From Magnetospirillum sulfuroxidans (GTDB taxonomy: Bacteria; Pseudomonadota; Alphaproteobacteria; Rhodospirillales; Magnetospirillaceae): a stretch of 64,000 bases of DNA. Positions 23,564 to 37,682 of the stretch are shown piece after piece. The number at the start of each line of letters is the position of its first letter. Positions within the stretch are counted from its first letter, which is position 1. The notes beneath the pieces were generated by a model. It had not been told where the DNA came from, made no database searches, and saw only the letters and a program-made list of their open reading frames with translations. The stretch lies in assembly GCF_018224925.1 (NCBI RefSeq), contig NZ_JAGTUF010000005.1, positions 62,001 through 126,000 of the forward strand, written 5' to 3'. The position numbers and the translations under genes were made by a program.

Positions 23564-25105
23564 CTAATGCGATGTCCCATTGGAATAGGTGATCTTGTTC
23601 CAGACATTATACTTGCCGATGGGGGCATTCATCGGCAGACGCTTTTCCTCGGCGAAGCTTTTGGCGTCGATGACGATAACCGCGCCATCCTTTTCCGACA
23701 CCGACAACAACAGCTTGGTTCCGTCGCGATTGAATTCCACATGGCGGGTCAGGCGGCCTTTGGCCGGACGCACGGTCTTGACGATCTCCAGCGTGCGGGT
23801 GTCGATGATCTGCATGGCGTCGCGCTCCTTGCCCATGGAGACATCGACCCAGGCATAGGGGCTGTTTTCATGACCGCGCATGAAAAAGCCCGGCCCCAAG
23901 GTGGGGATGCGCTTGACCGTTTCCCAGGTCCGCATGTCGATAACGCTGACCATCGCCTCTTTCAGGTGCGGCGTCGCCATCAGCAAGCGTTCGCCTTGCC
24001 TGAAGACGATCCCCGACCCCAGATGCGGCATGCCGCCAAGATCCAGGTCGGCGATTTTGCGTTTCAGATCAAGGTCAATCACCATGCCCTTCTTGCCGTC
24101 GCGCGAAGCCCCCATGACTTTTTCATAGCCTGGGTCAAAAAAGAAATCGTCCAGATAATCGGGGGTACGGATACGCAACGCCTGGAAACGTCCGTCGGTG
24201 CCGACGCCCTCTTCCAGCCCCTTTTCGCGCGAATGGGCCAAACCGTTGATCACCGGGGCGGCATCGTCGGCATAGGGGATTTCCCAAATTTCCTCCAGAT
24301 CGCGCAAGGCGACGACAAAGGAATGCCGCGGCGGCGCCGTATAGACCGCCGACACCCGGCTGGTCTTGCCGTCGCCTTCCACCGGGATCACCTGCAACAA
24401 CGACAGATCGTTTGCATCCAGCGCGACGAGCGTATGGGGCAACACGTTGCCGACCATGAGGAAGCGACCATCGTCAGAGACAGCGACGTTGCGGGTATTG
24501 ATCCCGGCGCGGATTTCCGCCATCAGCTTGCCGGTCCACATATCGACCTTGGAAATCCAGCCATCCCGAGAGGCGAAATAAACGAAGCGGCCGTCGGGGG
24601 AATATTTGGCGCCGCCATGCAAGGCAAAGCGGCTTTGAAACCGATAAAGCGGCTTCATATGATCGCCATCGACGATGCTGACATGATGGTCGCCGCCCTC
24701 GACCACGGTGAACAGGTTCATCGGATCGGCCTTGAACGGCGGTTTGACCGGCAGATCGGCGGTTCGGGTCACCACCAGATGCGACGCCGTAATCTCTTCT
24801 GCCCGCCATAGCGGCAAGGCCGGCACCGGGGAATAGACCAGTTTGACCAGCGCCTTGATCTGTTCGCCGCTCAACTGGTCCTTGAAGGCGGGCATTTGCG
24901 TCGCCGCGCGCCCCTCGGCCACCACCTTTTCCGCCTCGGCCGGTTTCAGCCGCCCCAGATTTTCCGGCAACAAGGCCGGACCGATGGCCCCCAGCCGGTC
25001 GGCGCCATGACAGGCGGCACAGGTTTCGGTGTAAAGCCGGTTGACGTCATCGGCCAAGGCCGGAACCGCCAGCAGAACCAAGGCCAGGGGAAGCAGGCGT
25101 TTCAT
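23564..25105 (-). CDS. nirN: NirN, c-type cytochrome with d1-haem-binding propeller
   Basis: This is a 513-residue periplasmic NirS paralogue that handles the late haem d1 precursor during cd1 nitrite reductase maturation. A Sec signal peptide (MKRLLPLALVLLAVPALA) and a class I cytochrome c domain with CAACH precede an eight-bladed-type d1 domain (HGGAKYSPDGRFVYFASRDGW). In Pseudomonas aeruginosa NirN acts with NirS and NirF. The start at 25105 overlaps the nirJ stop by four bases; the longer open frame upstream is nirJ in another frame. It is the last gene of the leftward nir operon. Confidence 0.9.
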   Translation of the reverse strand: MKRLLPLALVLLAVPALADDVNRLYTETCAACHGADRLGAIGPALLPENLGRLKPAEAEKVVAEGRAATQMPAFKDQLSGEQIKALVKLVYSPVPALPLWRAEEITASHLVVTRTADLPVKPPFKADPMNLFTVVEGGDHHVSIVDGDHMKPLYRFQSRFALHGGAKYSPDGRFVYFASRDGWISKVDMWTGKLMAEIRAGINTRNVAVSDDGRFLMVGNVLPHTLVALDANDLSLLQVIPVEGDGKTSRVSAVYTAPPRHSFVVALRDLEEIWEIPYADDAAPVINGLAHSREKGLEEGVGTDGRFQALRIRTPDYLDDFFFDPGYEKVMGASRDGKKGMVIDLDLKRKIADLDLGGMPHLGSGIVFRQGERLLMATPHLKEAMVSVIDMRTWETVKRIPTLGPGFFMRGHENSPYAWVDVSMGKERDAMQIIDTRTLEIVKTVRPAKGRLTRHVEFNRDGTKLLLSVSEKDGAVIVIDAKSFAEEKRLPMNAPIGKYNVWNKITYSNGTSH

Positions 25106-26229
25106 GCGATTTCCTTGTCGGTCAGATAGCAGCCGGGATCTTCGCCCCAGCGATCGCCGCCGGCGCGATCGGCCCGGACGCGGCTGTTGCCGTTGCAGAT
25201 GGACAGGTGACGGCAACCGCCGCAACGGCCGCCGACCCGGCGCGGATGCGGCCGCAACCCCGTCAATACCGGGTTGTCAGGATCGGACCACAAAGCCGAA
25301 AACGGGGTTTTGCGCACATTTCCCAACCGTTCGTGCCACCACATGGTGTCGGGATGGACCCAGCCCAGATTGTCGATATTGGCGACGTTGACGCCGGCAG
25401 CGTTGCCGCCCCATTGCCGCAGCTTGGCCGCCAGATGGTCGGCCGCAGCAGGCCAGCGGGAAGCAGCCCAAGCCAGAAAGAACGGTCCATCGGCATCGTT
25501 ATTGCCGGTGACGCATTCGACCAAAGGGTGAGCCAAAGCAAAATCAAATAATGTTTCCATGGCCTTGCGCGTCATTGTGAAACCAGCGTCATCCGCCCGG
25601 TTGACATTGCCGCGCCCGGCGTAATTGAGATGGGAGAAATAGAACTTCCCCACCCCCTCATCCGCCGTCAACCTAAGGATGTCAGCGAAGTGATGGGCAT
25701 TTTCAGCGGTCATGGTAAAGCGCAACCCGACCTTGACGCCGCGCTCGCGGCACAGACGCAAGCCATGCAAGGCACTGGCGAAGGCGCCGTCACGGCCGCG
25801 AAAGGCGTCGTTGACGCCGCCAATGCCGTCAAGCGAAACCCCGACATAATCAAAGCCGGTATCGGCGATGCGGTCGGCCAACGCCTCGGTGATCAAGGTG
25901 CCGTTGGACGACAACGACAACGAGGGAAAGCACAAATTCTTGGCCTCGGCGGCGATGGAAAAGATATCGGGGCGCAACAGCGGTTCGCCACCGGACAAGA
26001 TCAGCGCCGGCACCTTGAAGGCGCGTAAATCGGTCATCACCGCGATGATTTCATCAAGATCCAGCTCGCCGGCGAAATCCTTGTCGGCCGAGGTCGAATA
26101 GCAATGTCGGCACAACAGATTGCACCGCCTGATCAGATTCCAAATCACCACTGGACCGGGTGGATTGCGCCGAGGGCCGACCGGGCTGGGATTATGGATT
26201 TCGCGTAGAAACTGGCTCAGGCGGAACAT
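25102..26229 (-). CDS. nirJ: NirJ, radical SAM haem d1 biosynthesis protein
   Basis: This is a 375-residue radical SAM enzyme that removes propionate side chains of the siroheme-derived precursor to create haem d1 keto groups. The SAM/[4Fe-4S] motif CNLLCRHC lies near residue 36. A C-terminal SPASM-like cysteine set (CGGCRHLSICNGNSRVRA, then DPGCY) indicates an auxiliary cluster. A strong ribosome site (GGGGAGGG) precedes the ATG. It lies between nirH and nirN in the order seen in other denitrifiers. Confidence 0.95.
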   Translation of the reverse strand: MFRLSQFLREIHNPSPVGPRRNPPGPVVIWNLIRRCNLLCRHCYSTSADKDFAGELDLDEIIAVMTDLRAFKVPALILSGGEPLLRPDIFSIAAEAKNLCFPSLSLSSNGTLITEALADRIADTGFDYVGVSLDGIGGVNDAFRGRDGAFASALHGLRLCRERGVKVGLRFTMTAENAHHFADILRLTADEGVGKFYFSHLNYAGRGNVNRADDAGFTMTRKAMETLFDFALAHPLVECVTGNNDADGPFFLAWAASRWPAAADHLAAKLRQWGGNAAGVNVANIDNLGWVHPDTMWWHERLGNVRKTPFSALWSDPDNPVLTGLRPHPRRVGGRCGGCRHLSICNGNSRVRADRAGGDRWGEDPGCYLTDKEIA

Positions 26230-28110: not shown

Positions 28111-29274
28111 CTAAAGCCCGATCCGGTGGGCGCGGGCGGTGAAAAAGATGCCCGACGGCTTGGACGCCGGAAGCGCCGCGACCTGGGTGATGGTTTCGGT
28201 ATCCCAGACGGTGACCTGGTCGGAATCGCGGGCCGACAGCCACACCCGTTCGCCTCGCGGCGTGAATTCCAGGTGCAAGACGGCGAGCCCCGGCTCGATG
28301 GTCTTGAGCACGCTTAAGGAAGGCACGTCGATCACCTGCACCTTGCCGTTATCGGGGATGGCGAAATTGACCCATAGCCGCCGCCCGCCCGGTTGCAACA
28401 TGGCGAAAACCGGCTGACCGGCAACGGCGATGCGCCCGACCTCACGCCAGCTGGTCATGTCCACCACCAGCACTTCATGGCGGCCGATGGCCGGCAGAAA
28501 GGCCAGATTTCCCGACGCCGCCCAGCCTTCCAGATGCGGCATCTTGTAGACCGGCAATGCCTCTTGCCCACGGCCGTAATGGTCAAGAATCCGGCGCACG
28601 CCCAAATCCGGGTTCCACAAATCCAGCATGGCGATGCCGTCCTCGCCGAACAGACCGGCCATGTAATAGCGGCCATCCTCGGTGATCAGCGCGTCATAGG
28701 GCTGGTTGCCGATATGGGGAAATTTGCGGACTTTCGGGCTGGAACGGTCCTTTAGGTCCAGCAGCCAGATTTCACCGGCATCATAAAGGGAAAAGGCAAA
28801 GATATTGCCCGGCGCGTCTTCCAGCCCGACCACCTTGGACGATTTCCCATCGGCGCCAATGGCGGCGATATCGGCGACCAGTTCCAAGCTGTCGCTGTCG
28901 AACACCTTGACGCCGCCCGGCGTGTAATTGGCCACCGCCACCAACGAACCGTCCTGCGAGATGGCGCCGCCGATGGAATTGCCCGATTGCATCACCCGAC
29001 CGACGATACGCGCTTGCAGCATGTCGATCTTGGTCAGGCCGCCATCGCGGCCAAAGACGAAAGCGAAACGTTCATCACGGGAATACACCACCGAGGCGTG
29101 AGACAGATCCCCCAGCCCGGAAATCTCGGCCAGCGTGGTCGAATGGGTGTTTTCCACCATTTTCAGGCGGCCATCGGCGCGTTCCACCACCAAGCCCAGA
29201 TCGCCGGTGGCGCGCAAGGTGGGGGCGCAAGCTCCCAACAACAGCAGCAAAGCGGCGGACAGGATCGTCTTCAT
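28111..29274 (-). CDS. nirF: NirF, haem d1 biosynthesis lipoprotein
   Basis: This is a 387-residue NirS-like propeller without a cytochrome domain, needed for a late haem d1 step in the periplasm. An N-terminal lipobox is clear (LLLLLGAC, Cys16), so the protein should be membrane-anchored. Propeller signatures include SVVYSRDERFAFVFGRDGGLTKID and VVDMTSWREVGRI. The open frame runs further upstream, but the ATG at 29274 gives the signal peptide and overlaps the nirC stop (ATGA). Confidence 0.92.
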   Translation of the reverse strand: MKTILSAALLLLLGACAPTLRATGDLGLVVERADGRLKMVENTHSTTLAEISGLGDLSHASVVYSRDERFAFVFGRDGGLTKIDMLQARIVGRVMQSGNSIGGAISQDGSLVAVANYTPGGVKVFDSDSLELVADIAAIGADGKSSKVVGLEDAPGNIFAFSLYDAGEIWLLDLKDRSSPKVRKFPHIGNQPYDALITEDGRYYMAGLFGEDGIAMLDLWNPDLGVRRILDHYGRGQEALPVYKMPHLEGWAASGNLAFLPAIGRHEVLVVDMTSWREVGRIAVAGQPVFAMLQPGGRRLWVNFAIPDNGKVQVIDVPSLSVLKTIEPGLAVLHLEFTPRGERVWLSARDSDQVTVWDTETITQVAALPASKPSGIFFTARAHRIGL

Positions 29275-29582
29275 GGCGTTTCCCCTTTTAGCCGCCGCAC
29301 CAGCCAGCGGGCATCGGCTTCGCTCAGCATCAATTTCCACGGAGGCATCGGCGTGCCGGGGCGACCGTCAAGAATGGTGGCGACCAGGGCCTCGTCGCCC
29401 AGTTCACGCATGGCCTCCATGGTCAAGGGCGAGCCCAGGCCGCCCTTGCGGGTCATGCCGTGACACGACCCGCAATCTTGATCCAGCAAGGCGCTTAATT
29501 GTTGTTGCCGCTGGGCGCTGGGCTCGGACGCCCAAGCCGGAAAGGCCAGCGGCAACAAGGTCGAAAGCAAAAGCCGCTTCAT
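29271..29582 (-). CDS. nirC: NirC, small periplasmic cytochrome c
   Basis: This is a 103-residue monohaem cytochrome c (c55x type) with a Sec signal peptide (MKRLLLSTLLPLAFPAWAS), one CGSCH haem site and a PPWKLMLSE segment with the likely distal Met. In other denitrifiers NirC can pass electrons to NirS and supports its maturation. Both ends overlap neighbours by four bases (nirE, nirF). Confidence 0.88.
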   Translation of the reverse strand: MKRLLLSTLLPLAFPAWASEPSAQRQQQLSALLDQDCGSCHGMTRKGGLGSPLTMEAMRELGDEALVATILDGRPGTPMPPWKLMLSEADARWLVRRLKGETP

Positions 29583-30408: not shown

Positions 30409-31452
30409 TTACTGCTTGACCGCCTTGATCTCGCCTTCGGCCCCCAGCCCCAGGCGCATGTCGACGGACACATGGTGGAAGCGGCCGGCGGCGTGATCGT
30501 CATGGACGGCGAACCCGACCGTATAGGCCTTGCCGTCTTCCAGGGCGACATCGCCGGGCAGGCCGGATTTCAGCTTGCGCGTCATCGTCACCACCCACTG
30601 ATCGCCGTCTTTCTTGCCGGTGAAGATGGCGCCGGCATTTTCCTTCAATACGCGTTCGGCCAGGATGTAACCATCTTCCGACACCCCGCCCTTGCCGCTT
30701 TTAAAGCGGGCCAGGTCCAAGAAAGTGCCGTCCTTGAGCAGCGCATCCAGTTCAGCCTGGGGCTTGACCTTGTCCCAGCCGCCGCGCGGTTCTTCCTTGA
30801 CCGAAATGGCGGTGCGGCTTTCCGGCAGATACTTGGTGACATAGCCATGCGAGGTGTCGATCCCCTTGGCGGCGGCCAACGCCTCTTTTTTCGGCGCCGA
30901 CGGCATGTCGCGGGCGTCGTTATGGCAACTGGCCCAGCAGCCCGATTGCGCCGCCTTATCGACCTTGCCGCCATCGAACATCATGGCCAGCTTGATTTCA
31001 TTGTCGGCATCCATCATGCCGCCAGCGGCGAACGGCACGGCATTGTGCGGCCCGACGGGAAAGGAAAAACGCATGTACAAGGTATCGGCGTCATAGGCCG
31101 CCTTGATCGACAGCGGCACCGAGGCGCGCTTGCCGGGAATGGGGGTGGTCTCGGCCTTTTGCCCGCTCACCATCTTCTTGCCCATGTCGGCGGTTTCTTC
31201 CGAATGGCAGCCGGCGCAATTGTCGCCCTTTTTCAGGAACGAACGGGCGCCGCCGTGATCGGTGCCGGTCTGAATCCATTCATAAGAGGTCTGGCCGGGA
31301 TAGAACAAAACCGTCTTGGCCTCGGGAACCTTGGCCCAATCAATGGTCTTGCCGGCGGCCAGCGCCGATCCTGCCCCCCAGATCCCCCCGCCAAAGACAA
31401 GGGCACAGGCGGCCACACTCAGGGTTTTCAGCGCGCTCCGATAGATCATCAT
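30409..31452 (-). CDS. Diheme c-type cytochrome with ethylbenzene-dehydrogenase-gamma-like domain
   Basis: This is a 347-residue periplasmic protein encoded between nirT and nirE. After a signal peptide ending near AALAAG it has a canonical haem site CAGCH and a second, unusual CX3CH site (QSGCWASCH). The mid and C-terminal parts (LYMRFSFPVG, YTVGFAVHDDHAAGRFHHVSVDM) resemble the haem-binding domain family of ethylbenzene dehydrogenase gamma and related cytochromes. It is not the short cytochrome called NirB in Pseudomonas stutzeri, although its position after nirT is similar. The ATG at 31452 has AAGGAG five bases upstream; a GTG lies six bases earlier. Confidence 0.78.
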   Translation of the reverse strand: MMIYRSALKTLSVAACALVFGGGIWGAGSALAAGKTIDWAKVPEAKTVLFYPGQTSYEWIQTGTDHGGARSFLKKGDNCAGCHSEETADMGKKMVSGQKAETTPIPGKRASVPLSIKAAYDADTLYMRFSFPVGPHNAVPFAAGGMMDADNEIKLAMMFDGGKVDKAAQSGCWASCHNDARDMPSAPKKEALAAAKGIDTSHGYVTKYLPESRTAISVKEEPRGGWDKVKPQAELDALLKDGTFLDLARFKSGKGGVSEDGYILAERVLKENAGAIFTGKKDGDQWVVTMTRKLKSGLPGDVALEDGKAYTVGFAVHDDHAAGRFHHVSVDMRLGLGAEGEIKAVKQ

Positions 31453-31454
31453 TC

Positions 31455-32048
31455 TCACTCCTTGGCGTCTTCTTCGTCTTCCAAATCCTGATGCACCGGC
31501 TTATGGGCGATGCCCTTGTGGCAATCGATGCAGGTCTGCCCCTCTTCCTGGGCATTTTCGTGCTGCTTGCGCGCCCGCTGCTTTTGCTTATCCGGATTCA
31601 TCTGATCAAAGGCGTGGCAGTTGCGGCATTCGCGTGAATCGCTGGCCTTCATGCGCGCCCATTCGCGCTTGGCCATTTCCAAGCGGTTGGCGTCGAATTT
31701 CTCGGGTGTCGACACCGTGCCCATGAACTTGTGGTACAGCTCGTTCGAGGCCTGGATCTTACGCGCCACCTTGTGCACCCAATCCTTGGGGACATGGCAA
31801 TCCGGGCATGCGGCGCGAACGCCGGAACGGTTGGTGTAGTGAACCGTCTTTACATACTCTTGATATACGTTGTCCTTCATTTCATGACATGAAATGCAGA
31901 ACTCCAAGGTATTGGTGGCTTCCATGGCGGTATTGAACGCGCCCCAGAAGACAATGCCGCCGACGAAAATAACCGCCGCCCCCAACAGGGACGCCCCCAG
32001 TATCTTCATCTTTGACACTCGGCTGAACAGTGACTGATTGGAAGCCAT
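31455..32048 (-). CDS. nirT: NirT, membrane tetrahaem cytochrome c (NapC/NirT family)
   Basis: This is a 197-residue quinol-oxidising cytochrome. One N-terminal TM anchor ([20 protein letters not shown]) is followed by four haem sites CISCH, CPDCH, CRNCH and CIDCH, with family segments such as CHVPKDW and ELYHKFMGT. NapC/NirT proteins pass electrons from the quinol pool to periplasmic reductases; here the likely recipients are NirS and the neighbouring diheme protein. The C-terminal 15 residues are strongly charged ([13 protein letters not shown]). It is the first gene of the leftward nir operon and diverges from nirS. Confidence 0.94.
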
Positions 32049-32332: not shown

Positions 32333-34006
<1,674 letters not shown>

Positions 34007-34059: not shown

Positions 34060-34144
34060 ATTGCCTAACCAAAGTCAAGGGCGCGGAACCGGCGCGGGTC
34101 CAGTGTGCAACCAGCGGGGATACGGGTTACGGGGGGTGACTGAC

Positions 34145-34858
34145 GTGCTGACCGACGCTCTTGCCATCTTACGGCGCCATCCGGTCTTCGGCACCCTGCC
34201 GGAAGATGATTTACCCGCCTTGCTGGACCAGCCGCCGTGGCGATCGTTCGCCGCGGGGGAATGCCTGTTTTGCCAAAACGATCCCGCCACCCGGCTTTAT
34301 GTGGTGATTGATGGTCAAGTGGAACTGGCGGTGCGGCGTCCCGATTGTGCCCCCGAAGTCCTGTCGCATCTGTCGTCGGGGGCGGCGCTCGGGGTTGATG
34401 CGCTCATTCCCGGCACCCAGCACATCGCCACCGCCCAGGCGGCGACCCAATGCCGCGCCGCGATCGTCGATGGGGCCAAACTGGTGGCCTATCTGGATGG
34501 GCATTTTGACCTGACCTTGGCGATGATCGCCGAAATGGCCGGCAGCCTGCACGGTCTGGTCAAGGAAATCACCGAACTGAAACTGCAATCGACCACCGAA
34601 CGGCTGGCCAGTTATCTGGCCGGACTGGCGGCGGGTCACAGCGCCGATAACCGCGTGGAAGTGCGCTTGCCGTTCGAAAAACGCCTGCTGGCCGAGCGTC
34701 TGGGGATGGAGCCGGCGACGTTGTCGCGAGCTTTTGCCAAATTGCGCGAAATCGGGGTCGAGAGCGGACGGGGCGACCGCGTCGCCATTGCCGATCTGGC
34801 CGAATTGCGGCGGCTGGGCGAAGCGCTGGAGATGCTTGCGGACGGAGAAATGTCATGA
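34145..34858 (+). CDS. Crp/Fnr family regulator (Dnr/Nnr-like)
   Basis: This is a regulator of about 237 residues: a cyclic-nucleotide-binding-like beta barrel (residues about 10-120), a dimer helix and a C-terminal winged helix (FEKRLLAERLGMEPATLSRAFAKLREIG). It lacks a cysteine set for an Fe-S cluster. At the DNA-contact site the FNR-type E-x-x-S-R reads A-x-x-S-R by eye. The frame opens at 34061 inside the nirS terminator, so I prefer the GTG at 34145, with GGGGGG eight bases upstream; a GTG at 34136 is an alternative. It is next to nirS, so NO or nitrite-responsive control of denitrification is likely. Confidence 0.82.
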   Translation: MLTDALAILRRHPVFGTLPEDDLPALLDQPPWRSFAAGECLFCQNDPATRLYVVIDGQVELAVRRPDCAPEVLSHLSSGAALGVDALIPGTQHIATAQAATQCRAAIVDGAKLVAYLDGHFDLTLAMIAEMAGSLHGLVKEITELKLQSTTERLASYLAGLAAGHSADNRVEVRLPFEKRLLAERLGMEPATLSRAFAKLREIGVESGRGDRVAIADLAELRRLGEALEMLADGEMS

Positions 34859-35619
34859 CCTGTCCCTGTCGCGCGTTATGTCTGGTGCCCAAGCCGGACT
34901 GCACCAAGGTCCGCGGCCAGTTGCCGCGCCATCGCGCCACCGGCCCCCATTTGGCCAAGCAGGTCATGGCGCTGCCGCTGTTCGACGGCCTGGAACATGA
35001 CATCTTGGAACGGCTGATGGCCGATTCCACCGCCCTGAGCCTGGAGCGGCGATCCTTGCTGTTTTCCGCCGGGGCCGTGGCCGATTGCTTTTACATCGTG
35101 TTGGATGGTCAGGTGAAACTGTCGGCGCTGACCCCGGACGGGCGCGAAAGCATCGTCGAGGTCTTCACCCCGGTTTCCTCTTTCGGCGAAGCTGCCATGC
35201 TGTCCATGGGAATGTTCCCCCTGCATGCGGAAGTGATCGAGGACGCCACCGTCATCCGTGTCGGCCGCCGCGCCTTTGTCGCCACCTTGCGCTCTGACCC
35301 GGTGGTCGGATATCGCATGCTGGCCGGCATGTGCCGCTGGCATCAGCGGCTCAGCTCGGAAATCCGTCACCTCAAGGAAATTCCGCCGTGGCAGCGCGTC
35401 GCCGAGTTCCTGCTGGCGCTGACCGACGCCCGCCACGGTCAAGCCATCGTCGCCCTGCCCTTCAACAAGGAAATCCTGGCCAGCCGCGTCGGTATCCGCC
35501 GCGAAAGCCTGTCGCGCGTGCTGGCGCGCCTGCGTGACATGGGCGTGCGCACCGAAGGCAATGCCGTCCGCATCGACGACGTCGCCAGCCTGCGCCAGCG
35601 TTGCGACGCGGCTCAATAA
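34855..35619 (+). CDS. Crp/Fnr family regulator with N-terminal cysteine cluster
   Basis: This is a 254-residue Crp/Fnr protein whose first 16 residues hold four cysteines (Cys3, Cys5, Cys9, Cys16). A sensor barrel (LLFSAGAVADCFYIVLDGQVKL) and a helix-turn-helix (FNKEILASRVGIRRESLSRVLARL) follow. The DNA-contact positions read E-x-x-S-R as in FNR. The N-terminal cysteines could hold an Fe-S cluster or other redox or metal sensor, though spacing differs from the E. coli FNR pattern. It is coupled to the preceding regulator by an ATGA overlap and overlaps the convergent CuA gene by seven bases. Confidence 0.85.
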   Translation: MTCPCRALCLVPKPDCTKVRGQLPRHRATGPHLAKQVMALPLFDGLEHDILERLMADSTALSLERRSLLFSAGAVADCFYIVLDGQVKLSALTPDGRESIVEVFTPVSSFGEAAMLSMGMFPLHAEVIEDATVIRVGRRAFVATLRSDPVVGYRMLAGMCRWHQRLSSEIRHLKEIPPWQRVAEFLLALTDARHGQAIVALPFNKEILASRVGIRRESLSRVLARLRDMGVRTEGNAVRIDDVASLRQRCDAAQ

Positions 35620-36041
35620 ATCTTCAACCGCATGCGGTTGTGGCCCAGGCCACAATATTCGTTGCAGCGCAATTCCACCGTATCGCCGGCCTGTGGCGTC
35701 ACCGTCAGTTCCTGCACCCGGCCGGGCGCCAGCAGCATTTCATGCCCCGCCACCACCACCGAATGAACCGCATCCTCGGCCATCAGCCGCAAACGATAGG
35801 TTTGCCCCGCCTGCAAATGTACGGCCGGCCAGAACTCGAAGCGGCGAGCCAGCATGGGCACATCCCCCGGTGGCGGCTCGACCACGCCGTCTTGGTCATG
35901 GGCGGCGGCGAATTGGCGGACCTGGTCGATAAAAACAGCAGGATCCACCGCTTGGCCCGACCCGGCTTCGGGCATCCGCCAGCCCGGCCACAGCCCGGCC
36001 AGCACAGCGAACAAAGCCACCGCGATCAGACCCTTAATCAT
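35613..36041 (-). CDS. CuA-domain subunit (cytochrome oxidase subunit II-like)
   Basis: This is a 142-residue protein with one N-terminal TM helix (IKGLIAVALFAVLAGLW) and a cupredoxin domain. The CuA site is complete: His in AEDAVHSV, then C-N-E-Y-C-G-L-G-H-N-R-M. It is shorter than usual subunit II and has only one membrane helix, as in B-family oxidases. It is encoded right after a subunit I-like gene with an 8-base overlap, so both should form an electron-accepting membrane complex. Confidence 0.85.
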   Translation of the reverse strand: MIKGLIAVALFAVLAGLWPGWRMPEAGSGQAVDPAVFIDQVRQFAAAHDQDGVVEPPPGDVPMLARRFEFWPAVHLQAGQTYRLRLMAEDAVHSVVVAGHEMLLAPGRVQELTVTPQAGDTVELRCNEYCGLGHNRMRLKIY

Positions 36042-37311
36042 GGCGCACCAACCGCGTGAGGACATGGCCGACGAACAACACCCCGCCCAGCACGGCGATG
36101 GCGCCGCCAATGCCGACCAAGCCCATGGAAACCAGTTTGAAAACGCTGTCCAGCCCCTGCTCGGCCCCGGCCGTCTTGCGCGCCACCCCGGCCAGTCCAG
36201 CCAGATAAAAACCAAGCGCATGTAAAATCTGCCCGCCGCCATAAAGGCCGATCTGCCAGCGCACCAGCCGAACCGACCGCACCACCCGCCCCAGGCGCGG
36301 CAACAGCACGACATGAACGAGGCCCATCAACGCCACATTCACGCCGCCGATCATGGCGTGATAATGCGATGGCGTGCGGGTATCGCCGGCCCCCAGGGCA
36401 AAGCCGGCGCCGCCGCCCAGGGCAAACACCAGCCACGATGCCAGCAAGGCCAAGCCGGCGAGCGAACGCCAATCCAAGGATCGCCGCAAGCGCCACAGCA
36501 ATGGACCGGCCAGCAGCATCGGCGGCACCGGCAGCAGATACCACAGCATCTGGGTATAGGCCTGCCGCCACGCCAGACCTTGGGGATCAAGGCGGGCCTC
36601 GATCACCAAGGCCGCCAGCGCTCCCACCGCCAACAAGGCAAAGGCCAGGGCAGACAGCCGGGTCTGCGCCTGCCCGCTCAAACGTTGCCACGCCCACATG
36701 ACCAGACCGGTATTGACGAATTGCAGCACATGGCCGCCGCCCCAGAACAGCCGTTCGTGCCGGAAAGCCGGTTCCAAATCACTGGGCAGGCGAAAAGCGG
36801 CCAAGGCGAAACAAAGCAGCGCCACCGCATAGGCTGACGCCACCAGCCCCAGGCCGGTGCGCGGACGAAACAATGCGCCGCCAATACCACCGGCACACAA
36901 GGCCAGGCCGACGAAATACAAGGGATGGTCAAGGATGGGGACGTAATTGTTCAAGGAGGCTTCGCCCCAACCGGCCAAGGTCACCAGCAGCAAGGCCAGA
37001 CAGCCGCAAATGGTCAGGGCGAAGCCGACAAAGCCGGGCCAACGCGGCGCCGCCGGCTGGACCGAAGCCGCCGCCAGCATGGCCAACAGCCAAATCTGAA
37101 ACGAAAACACCACATGGGTGACCAGAGCCTTGTGAAAAAACGCCGGCCCCGACGGCAACCAATCTTGCACCCCCGGCGTCCGCGCCAAGGCCAGCCCCAG
37201 GGCCAAGGCCCCGGCCACGGCCAATGCCGCCACCGCCATAAACAGCCAAAGCCGCAATTCCAGGGCGGCTAAATCACATCTTTCGTGTTGCGGACACTTG
37301 GCTTTCAACAC
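36034..37311 (-). CDS. Divergent haem-copper oxidase/NO reductase-like catalytic subunit
   Basis: This polytopic protein (about 425 residues, roughly 12 TM helices) belongs to the haem-copper oxidase superfamily. With the GTG start at 37311, His66 (helix II), His316 and His318 (SHYHAMIGG, helix X-type HxH) fit the haem ligands, and His194 (GGGHVLQF) fits the first CuB ligand. The Tyr of oxygen reductases is Phe198. The usual His-His pair of helix VII seems missing, with Glu238 (VIEARLD) near that place. These positions come from alignment by eye. This pattern suggests NO rather than O2 chemistry. GGGGAG precedes the GTG; an in-frame ATG is at 37329. Confidence 0.72.
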   Translation of the reverse strand: MLKAKCPQHERCDLAALELRLWLFMAVAALAVAGALALGLALARTPGVQDWLPSGPAFFHKALVTHVVFSFQIWLLAMLAAASVQPAAPRWPGFVGFALTICGCLALLLVTLAGWGEASLNNYVPILDHPLYFVGLALCAGGIGGALFRPRTGLGLVASAYAVALLCFALAAFRLPSDLEPAFRHERLFWGGGHVLQFVNTGLVMWAWQRLSGQAQTRLSALAFALLAVGALAALVIEARLDPQGLAWRQAYTQMLWYLLPVPPMLLAGPLLWRLRRSLDWRSLAGLALLASWLVFALGGGAGFALGAGDTRTPSHYHAMIGGVNVALMGLVHVVLLPRLGRVVRSVRLVRWQIGLYGGGQILHALGFYLAGLAGVARKTAGAEQGLDSVFKLVSMGLVGIGGAIAVLGGVLFVGHVLTRLVRHD

Positions 37312-37682
37312 GGCGCTCCCCAAATCCATCAATCATGTGGCGATTATCAAGTGAGATTTCCAGGCCAATGACTTAAATTCATTCACACAACACAAGCATA
37401 ACACTAGGCCATGTAATTATACTTGCCGCGACAGCATTCAAAACTCAATTTTTATTGAAAGTTTGCCAAATGTAACCAATTGTACAGCTTCATTACTGAT
37501 TTTATCGGAAAAAATATCCCGGTTTTTGCCACGTCGTGTTTGACAAGCGCCCAGAGGCATGCCCTTAATATCGGCAAAAGTGGATGGGTGCCTTGCGAAA
37601 ACCGCATGGCCCATCAGGAACCCCGCTCCCTCACCGCCGAATCTCGGCCGAGGTTAAGGCGGGTAACCCTCGGGAGGCATGC
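37312..37682. other. Intergenic region between the divergent oxidase-like and liv operons
   Basis: These 371 bases are AT-rich in the middle (37370-37510) and should hold two divergent promoters. The region contains short open frames with no plausible product. I see no convincing regulator palindrome; an isolated ATCAA half-site lies near 37350. Confidence 0.5.

What the first reader, a model, noticed from the sequence alone, without database searches (positions are those of the whole stretch)
35613..37329. CuA plus haem-copper oxidase-like pair with an altered CuB site beside nirS
The large subunit keeps His ligands fitting the two haems (HYH pair, helix II His) and one CuB-like His (GGGHVLQF). 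By eye it lacks the helix VII His-His pair, with a Glu in its place, and lacks the active-site Tyr (Phe). The small subunit has a complete CuA site. Ligand changes of this kind are known from divergent NO reductases in the superfamily (eNOR, sNOR, gNOR and relatives, recalled from memory). Next to nirS and two Crp/Fnr genes, a CuA-dependent NO reductase is a good hypothesis.
Basis: partly seen in the sequence, partly recalled or inferred. Interest (0 to 1): 0.75.

Follow-up and report, generated by a model that had tools for sequence, protein, structure and literature searches.

The report
Oxidase look-alike without its copper site
Beside a nitrite reductase gene lies a relative of the respiratory oxygen enzyme that has lost most of the copper site needed for catalysis; its relatives tend to travel with the genes that make haem A and build true oxidases, so it looks more like a helper of oxidase assembly than a nitric oxide reductase.

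Summary
The pair at 37329-35613 (-) is a haem-copper-oxidase-like large subunit and a CuA subunit with all six ligands. The large subunit keeps the haem histidines (H72, H322, H324) and one CuB histidine (H200). The helix VII His-His pair is missing in all 110 aligned rows, and the active-site Tyr is Phe.

The NO-reductase reading is not supported. The proteins form one clade ("COX1L" here), sister to eNOR-like proteins among the families I could include, but lack eNOR's helix VII histidines and active-site Gln and, mostly, its probable proton-channel residues. In 61 related genomes COX1L does not track nirS-like genes (p = 0.75; 0.11 counting weak hits) but tracks haem A synthase closely (48 both, 10 neither, 3 discordant; co-absent in 8 genera). 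Its genes often sit with CtaB, CtaA, SCO, DUF420/CtaM and true aa3-type or eNOR-like genes. SURF1 was not found in 59 of the 61; in the other two it lies directly after COX1L-CtaB.

Best reading: a CuB-less oxidase paralogue serving haem-A-oxidase biogenesis (inferred, about 0.45); rival: an enzyme of its own.

The parts
36034..37329 (-). CuB-less haem-copper-oxidase-like large subunit (called COX1L here), 431 aa, multi-helix membrane protein
   Evidence: PF00115 E 1.1e-5, below cut-off; AF2 pLDDT 93; fold; profile alignments
35613..36041 (-). CuA subunit, 142 aa, hydrophobic N-terminus, gene overlaps the end of the large-subunit gene
   Evidence: CoxB E 3.7e-8, COX2 E 0.002, both below the curated cut-offs; ligand numbering; in 24 aligned rows, own included, of 30 loci tried, the ligands are 24/24 except E128 23/24 (six loci gave no clear CuA match)
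37114..37116 (-). H72, helix II, low-spin haem ligand
   Evidence: 106 of 106 covered rows
36730..36732 (-). H200, helix VI, the only CuB-type histidine left; followed by invariant Q203 and by F204 at the Tyr place
   Evidence: 110 of 110
36598..36603 (-). I243-E244, the place of the missing helix VII His-His pair
   Evidence: Tyr in 81, Glu in 12 of 110 at 244
36358..36366 (-). H322-Y323-H324, helix X, high-spin and low-spin haem ligands
   Evidence: 110 of 110
35631..35666 (-). CuA loop C126-x-E-x-C130-x3-H134-x2-M137
34855..35619 (+). Crp/Fnr regulator gene, convergent with the CuA gene (7-base overlap); context only
34061..34858 (+). second Crp/Fnr regulator gene; context only
32381..34006 (+). 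nirS, cytochrome cd1 nitrite reductase; context only
   Evidence: PF02239 E 3.5e-149

Best explanation
SHOWN: the large subunit belongs to a conserved, selected family (COX1L) of the haem-copper superfamily, sister to eNOR-like subunits I among the families I could include. It keeps the ligands of two haems and the propionate Arg-Lys pair but has lost two of three CuB ligands, the active-site Tyr/Gln and, in most members, candidate proton-channel residues. In the window's order its presence follows haem A synthase, and its genes often lie among haem O/A synthesis, SCO and CtaM-type genes and real aa3-type or eNOR-like genes. INFERRED: COX1L is not a terminal reductase. It is an oxidase-derived, haem-binding helper in the biogenesis of haem-A oxidases: it binds haem A/O (and in this lineage is wired to cytochrome c through CuA), holds, checks or redox-poises the haem, and hands it to, or dimerises with, nascent oxidase subunit I. 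In lineages without SURF1 it may do the job of that haem-A chaperone. In the window's genome the client would be the aa3 oxidase; the position beside nirS would be a secondary relocation.
For: Ligand loss in 110 of 110 rows. Against eNOR-like proteins: Q236 is Phe/Leu/Val/Ile; H281 and H282 gone; Y247 mostly Gln/Leu; S309 Pro in 74 (Ser in 9); H312 Met/Phe/Val/Ala; E83 Leu in 71 (Glu in 10); yet W, H, Q, N of helix VI, the haem ligands and Arg384 are held. COX1L x CtaA in 61 genomes: 48 both, 1 COX1L only, 2 CtaA only, 10 neither, Fisher p 8e-9, both absent in 8 genera. COX1L x nirS-like p 0.75. Neighbours in 80 loci: CtaB 47, CtaA 19, SCO 18, DUF420 14, COX3 7, a second COX1 27. At least 18 of 49 order members lie within 5 kb of an A1, A2-like or eNOR-like gene (the hit list was capped). 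Recurrent DUF420-COX1L-CtaB block beside aa3-type operons. SURF1 in 2 of 61, both directly after COX1L-CtaB, with other genomes showing CtaB-M32 without SURF1. In a class sample of CtaA+ genomes COX1L is in 3 of 17 without SURF1 and 2 of 173 with it (p 0.005; 0.037 without the broken match of G193; not corrected for kinship).
Against: About half of the loci pair COX1L with a complete CuA motif (38 of 80 within 1.2 kb downstream, plus two fusions), which suggests steady electron transfer that a chaperone need not have. Two CtaA+ genomes lack COX1L (G039, G043), and 14 of 17 CtaA+ SURF1-minus genomes of the class sample lack it too. G140 and G191 have both SURF1 and COX1L. G056 has an aa3-type gene but neither CtaA nor COX1L was found (87% complete). 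In the window's genome COX1L lies on another contig than ctaA and the aa3 gene. Co-occurrence with haem A also fits an enzyme that simply uses haem A. CtaA was not searched in the 22 carriers outside Alphaproteobacteria. There is no biochemical evidence; the SURF1 pattern is largely one clade.
Confidence: 0.45

Rival explanations
1. An enzyme of its own: cytochrome c -> CuA -> low-spin haem -> copper-free high-spin haem, reducing a small oxidant (H2O2, O2 or NO at low rate) at a haem with distal H200/Q203. Its gene keeps company with ctaA/ctaB/sco only because it needs haem A and CuA itself.
For: All haem ligands, Arg-Lys and (in the CuA group) the CuA ligands kept; Q203 and W196 invariant around the remaining His; fused COX1L-CuA frames L088, L097; Deltaproteobacterial operons COX1L-CtaB-cytochrome c without CuA.
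Against: Loss of candidate proton-channel residues in most members; presence in 48 of 50 CtaA+ genomes of the order is higher than expected for an optional extra enzyme; many members lack an adjacent electron-entry subunit; 16 intact and 1 split eNOR-like genes in 22 non-alphaproteobacterial carriers suggest a partner.
Confidence: 0.3
2. A non-catalytic structural or regulatory partner: COX1L forms a heterodimer or supercomplex with the haem-A oxidase or eNOR, or senses O2/NO/redox state through its haems.
For: Same-strand neighbours CuA-eNOR-like-COX1L in L081, L104, L106 (with CtaB-SCO behind) and L111, and oxidase-COX1L pairs; in G069, G070, G074, G075 and G080 the only PF00115 hits over 60 bits are one eNOR-like gene and one that I read as COX1L; two Crp/Fnr genes beside the window pair.
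Against: Partner type varies (A1, A2, eNOR-like), which makes one conserved docking less likely; no output domain; Crp/Fnr-cluster genes occur in only 7 of 80 loci.
Confidence: 0.13
3. CuA-dependent NO reductase of denitrification with a rebuilt metal site.
For: Sister to eNOR-like proteins (hhalign E 1.7e-44); next to nirS in the window and in 5 of 80 loci.
Against: Only one CuB/FeB histidine; Glu not conserved; cNOR motifs H-X-Arom-X-E and H-H-X-Arom-Arom absent (motifs read); no significant association with nirS-like genes; the window genome has its own cNOR; no FNR-type box with two or fewer mismatches in 37330-37583 upstream of the pair.
Confidence: 0.07
4. A decaying pseudogene or relic.
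For: Loss of catalytic residues; weak Pfam score; the match in G193 is broken over frames.
Against: dN/dS 0.20-0.36, invariant residues across phyla, no stop inside any of the matches listed.
Confidence: 0.02

Closest known systems
eNOR (NO reductase family with Gln at the active-site Tyr place)
   Same: Sister clade in the tree made here (SH-aLRT 99 for the joint group); same helix VI frame W-G-x-G-H-x-x-Q-x-x-N; haem ligands and Arg384 shared. eNOR-like genes share loci or genomes with many COX1L genes.
   Different: COX1L lacks both helix VII histidines and the active-site Gln, and mostly lacks Y247, S309, H312 and E83 of the eNOR-like proteins; window protein 431 aa against about 500-560; many members have no CuA gene beside them. 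The label eNOR rests on the Gln rule read in PMC8756737 (table passage); no named eNOR sequence was compared.
Thermus ba3 oxidase (B-type)
   Same: Best Foldseek match among solved structures (E 2.8e-7, TM on the query 0.72-0.75; VIA Z about 29, rmsd 3.1-3.3 over about 390-405 residues, tied with many oxidases); best PDB sequence match of the profile (E 2.3e-20).
   Different: ba3 has three CuB histidines and the cross-linked Tyr (recalled; HH seen); COX1L has one histidine and Phe or an aliphatic residue.
cNOR/qNOR
   Same: Superfamily fold (3o0r, 4xyd).
   Different: FeB site of three His plus Glu absent.
SURF1 (haem A chaperone)
   Same: Same genomic place (after ctaB in L135/L136) and same company; possible functional equivalent.
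   Different: Unrelated protein; analogy only, and only inferred.
CtaM/DUF420
   Same: Frequent neighbour directly before COX1L; CtaM is required for aa3-type oxidases in Staphylococcus and Bacillus (passages of PMC9145763 and PMC8239418).
   Different: Small protein with four or five TM and without the oxidase fold.

Membership tests
Haem-copper oxidoreductase superfamily (subunit I) | Oxidase subunit I fold | tested here: met
   AF2 pLDDT 93, Foldseek and VIA matches
Haem-copper oxidoreductase superfamily (subunit I) | Three haem-ligating histidines (helix II, two in helix X) | tested here: met
   H72, H322, H324
Haem-copper oxidoreductase superfamily (subunit I) | Three CuB/FeB histidines (six invariant His in all) | tested here: not met
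   Only H200; 0 of 110 rows with His-His. The classifier PMC3084760 discarded sequences lacking the six His (passage)
Oxygen reductase (A/B types) | Active-site Tyr in helix VI | tested here: not met
   F204; family Phe 78, Leu 15, Val 9, Ile 7, Ala 1 of 110
eNOR | Gln in place of the active-site Tyr | tested here: not met
   eNOR-like Q236 aligns with F204; Q203 is one residue earlier and aligns with Q235
eNOR | Phylogenetic position inside the eNOR clade | tested here: not met
   COX1L 31 of 31 rows in one clade outside the 9 eNOR-like rows, SH-aLRT 99 (quick tree; A1, A2, cbb3, cNOR and eNOR-like only)
cNOR/qNOR | H-X-Arom-X-E and H-H-X-Arom-Arom-X17-E motifs | tested here: not met
   HVLQF; no HH
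sNOR/bNOR (CuANOR) | Asn at the Tyr place with CuB His kept | tested here: not met
   Phe at the Tyr place, one His
gNOR | Asp at the active-site place; one CuB His replaced by Asp in certain NOR types | tested here: not met
   No Asp at 200, 203, 204, 243 or 244 of the window protein, nor among the commonest residues of the family there; rules read
nNOR | Active-site ligands as defined by Murali et al. 2024 | not testable with these tools
   Paper not held; passages elsewhere give no ligands
CuA subunit (COX2) | H, C-x-E-x-C-x3-H-x2-M | tested here: met
   H93, C126, E128, C130, H134, M137
Haem-A-oxidase biogenesis factor | Needed for haem A or CuB/CuA insertion in an oxidase | not testable with these tools
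   Only genomic association

The most novel reading that the evidence does not exclude
A whole clade of the haem-copper superfamily gave up its copper site and became a haem-handling 'pseudo-oxidase': it loads or quality-checks haem A (with CuA as redox wiring in some lineages) for aa3-type oxidases and eNOR, and took over from SURF1 in Rhodospirillales-type Alphaproteobacteria, where SURF1 was then lost from its old place after ctaB.
Probability: 0.28. Interest if true: 0.82.

Novelty: new variant of a known kind. Interest (0 to 1): 0.62.

Why it matters
The superfamily classifier I could read accepted only sequences with six conserved histidines, so a conserved clade without most CuB ligands would be missed by such surveys. 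If it serves haem A insertion, it would help to explain how organisms with aa3 oxidases manage without SURF1, and would give a testable bacterial model of haem A handling. If it is an enzyme, it would be a copper-free active site in this fold. Either way it warns against calling such pairs NO reductases because they lie beside nirS.

Tried and rejected
NO reductase coupled to nirS: tested by co-occurrence and not supported. PF02239 also hits NirF/NirN-like proteins, so 'nirS-like' is generous. I counted genomes with E below 1e-70 as positive (38 of 61) and those with only weak hits (E 1e-3 to 5e-8) as negative; counting weak hits too gives 48 of 61 and p 0.11.

Glu244 as a replacement metal ligand: rejected, 12 of 110. 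FNR control of the pair: no site with two or fewer mismatches to TTGAT-N4-ATCAA in 37330-37583; the window as a whole has more matches than its shuffles (40 against 18.4), which I did not pursue.

Strict pairing with eNOR: in the order only 17 of 49 carriers have the eNOR-like gene, and the window genome has none. Outside Alphaproteobacteria I did not find it in G062, G066, G076, G078 and G082; for G078 and G082 no candidate was fetched, and two candidates (L133, L134) were HPAVY types. Strict pairing with CuA: 38 of 80 by a motif rule, plus two fusions; some of the 80 have cut flanks. A plasmid search found nothing. A first alignment script read one strand only and gave nonsense; replaced.

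In the class sample 18 of 240 genomes matched the family profile. I counted the 5 above 200 bits as COX1L (G000, G140, G191, G193, G291). The match in G193 is broken over frames and no WGGGH was found, so it is doubtful; without it the SURF1 test gives p 0.037. The other 13 (12 with 143-166 bits and 565-597-aa frames, and fragments in G168) I read as eNOR-like or other B-type, unchecked by motif. The SURF1 and CtaA sets were typed and their sizes agree with the tallies (180, 190). Sequences were chosen by peptide patterns and are biased at WGGGH and HYHA; those are not.

The eNOR-like alignment has 29 rows, of which a few genes are in twice (27 different). hhalign against A1 and A2 rows was weaker (E 1e-6 and 4e-4) and put other residues opposite His-His, so the register rests on eNOR-like proteins and ba3. 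The tree is a quick one without ba3, sNOR, gNOR or nNOR references. Gene calls in loci come from a simple script of mine that missed some genes, the window's own CuA gene among them.

Literature: searches listed no paper whose title or shown abstract describes a CuB-less COX1 family tied to haem A genes. I read passages found by term in 13 papers and none as a whole. The library lacks most subscription papers; Murali et al. (PNAS 2024) is recalled only.

Full report
What is there. On the minus strand, 37329-36034 encodes a 431-residue membrane protein and 36041-35613 an overlapping 142-residue protein. Pfam sees COX1 below its cut-off in the first (E 1.1e-5); NCBIfam sees CoxB (E 3.7e-8) and Pfam COX2 (E 0.002) in the second, both below their cut-offs. 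A search of the PDB with the single large sequence found nothing relevant. The AlphaFold2 model of the large subunit (77 relatives in the alignment) has mean pLDDT 93.0. Its best Foldseek matches in the PDB are Thermus ba3 oxidases and 7deg (E about 3e-7, TM on the query 0.72-0.75), with cbb3, aa3 and cNOR behind; VIA-align gives Z about 29 for many oxidases alike. A profile of the family finds ba3 first among PDB sequences (E 2.3e-20).

Site by site (431-aa numbering). H72, H322 and H324 are the haem ligands and R384-K385 the propionate pair; H200 is the first CuB ligand (roles from knowledge of the superfamily). In 110 aligned rows H200, Q203, W196, H322, Y323, H324, R384 and K385 do not vary, and H72 is 106 of 106 where covered. 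The helix VII pair is gone: profile alignment with 29 eNOR-like rows puts their two histidines at 243 (Ile 46, Leu 26, Phe 20, Val 12) and 244 (Tyr 81, Glu 12, Phe 9), the alignment with ba3 agrees, and no row has His-His there. The Tyr place is Phe 78, Leu 15, Val 9, Ile 7, Ala 1. Relative to eNOR-like proteins most members have also lost Y247, S309, H312 and E83. The first three lie where, from memory, ba3 has its K-channel residues. The small subunit has all six CuA ligands. dN/dS of the large-subunit gene is 0.20-0.36.

Family. A search of 61 genomes (own, genus, family, order) found the protein in 49, a few as fragments. A scan of one genome per species found 135 stretches that encode a relative and kept 80: mostly Rhodospirillales-type Alphaproteobacteria, then Deltaproteobacteria (filed under Myxococcota or Thermodesulfobacteriota), Nitrospinota, Nitrospirota and Hyphomicrobium MAGs. 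In a class-wide sample it is rare: 5 of 240 genomes, one of them doubtful. In a tree with A1, A2, eNOR-like, cbb3 and NorB proteins all 31 members sampled form one clade next to the eNOR-like clade (SH-aLRT 99, quick search). I call the family COX1L.

Neighbourhoods. In the 80 loci: haem O synthase CtaB in 47, a clustered CuA subunit in 35 (plus the window), haem A synthase CtaA in 19, SCO in 18, DUF420 (CtaM family) in 14, COX3 in 7 and a second COX1 gene in 27. Of these 27, 14 are eNOR-like, 5 carry HPEVY or HPEAY, 7 carry HPAVY and 1 is partial. A CuA motif lies within 1.2 kb downstream in 38 of 80, plus two fusions; in many of the others the next gene is CtaB, and in several Deltaproteobacteria CtaB then a cytochrome c. 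nirS is a neighbour in 5 of 80, four of them in records named Magnetospirillum and one in a Rhodospirillaceae MAG. In the window COX1L-CuA runs convergent to the two Crp/Fnr genes, so they do not form one transcription unit.

Co-occurrence in the same 61 genomes. With nirS-like PF02239: 31 both, 18 COX1L only, 7 nirS-like only, 5 neither (p 0.75); with weak hits counted 41, 8, 7, 5 (p 0.11). With CtaA: 48 both, 1 COX1L only (G017, 88% complete, fragment), 2 CtaA only (G039, G043), 10 neither (p 8e-9); the 10 fall in 8 genera, three of them genomes under 90% complete and one a 0.9-Mb genome. With eNOR-like: 17 both, 32 COX1L only, 1 eNOR only, 11 neither. G016, whose best PF00115 hit is a 658-aa frame that I read as a bo3-type quinol oxidase, has neither CtaA nor COX1L, which fits haem A rather than haem O as the link. 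At least 18 of 49 COX1L genes lie within 5 kb of an A1, A2-like or eNOR-like gene (the list behind it is capped). P values ignore kinship; the repeated co-absences are the better argument.

SURF1. This haem A chaperone is found in 2 of the 61, while in the class sample it is in 180 of 240 and CtaA in 190. In both exceptions SURF1 follows COX1L-CtaB directly: SCO-CuA-COX1-DUF420-COX1L-CtaB-SURF1-M32 peptidase-threonine synthase in L135. L142 and L147 show CtaB-M32-threonine synthase, and L149 CtaB-M32, without SURF1. Among CtaA+ genomes of the class sample COX1L is in 3 of 17 without SURF1 and 2 of 173 with it (p 0.005; 0.037 without G193). Against a simple replacement: 14 of the 17 have neither, and two genomes have both.

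Outside Alphaproteobacteria. Of 22 carrier genomes examined, 21 have at least one PF00115 match besides COX1L (G078 has only one match, beside a CtaB match, which I read as COX1L), and all 22 have a CtaB-family match, 20 over the cut-off. In 16 I found an intact eNOR-like gene and in one a split one. CtaA was not searched in these.

Reading. The evidence shows a selected oxidase paralogue without an intact CuB site, tied to haem A and oxidase assembly genes rather than to nitrite reduction. A helper in haem-A-oxidase biogenesis explains the lost catalytic residues, the ctaB/ctaA/ctaM/SCO/SURF1 company and the co-absence with CtaA. It does not by itself explain why many members keep a perfect CuA site; a haem-only enzyme or redox partner explains that better. 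I put 0.45 on the helper, 0.30 on an enzyme of its own, 0.13 on a partner or sensor and 0.07 on an NO reductase.

Known or new. NOR families differ at the Tyr place (E, N, Q, D) and in certain types one CuB/FeB histidine becomes Asp (passages of PMC8756737 and PMC3475470). None described in those passages has a single CuB histidine. The superfamily classifier PMC3084760 discarded sequences lacking the six histidines (passage), which may be why such a family is easily missed. PMC6431628 speaks of degenerate B-family oxidases lacking the Tyr (passage), a different case. I could not read Murali et al. 2024, so identity with nNOR or another family there is open; hence new variant of a known kind, not categorically new.

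Noticed in passing
window 23564-25225 (-), 28111-29340 (-), 32381-34006 (+): Three PF02239 (cytochrome d1) matches in the window's own nir region (coordinates): NirS plus two that I take for NirN- and NirF-like by length and position.
   Followed up: no
window 30409-32048 (-): A 197-aa protein with several CxxCH motifs (NapC/NirT-like by eye) whose gene overlaps that of a 349-aa protein, between nirS and the d1-type genes; not checked against any library.
   Followed up: no
L081, L104, L106, L111 and L115-L131: eNOR-like subunits I (GH[PSA]SQQ with HHL) are frequent in Deltaproteobacteria, Nitrospinota and Nitrospirota genomes that carry COX1L.
   Followed up: partly
L081, L087, L090, L093, L099, L101, L102, L104-L106, L110, L114: A short protein of about 140 aa matching the first third of COX1 (PF00115 E 5.5e-8 in L101), often next to NifU, Mrp and a hybrid-cluster-associated protein: an oxidase-fold fragment family of unknown role.
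   Followed up: no
L041, L048, L052, L060, L061, L064, L065, L069, L070, L079, L083, L089: DUF2189 membrane proteins lie near COX1L or CtaA in 12 of 80 loci; role unknown.
   Followed up: no
L042, L045, L046, L050, L054, L056, L059, L063, L071: A cytochrome b-ferredoxin-FlpD fusion (about 524 aa) sits between the eNOR-like genes and COX1L in Magnetospirillum-type relatives.
   Followed up: no
window, whole: FNR-like TTGAT-N4-ATCAA matches with two or fewer mismatches are twice the shuffled expectation (40 against 18.4).
   Followed up: no
genomes G000-G060: SURF1 was not found in 59 of these 61 genomes although 50 have haem A synthase.
   Followed up: partly
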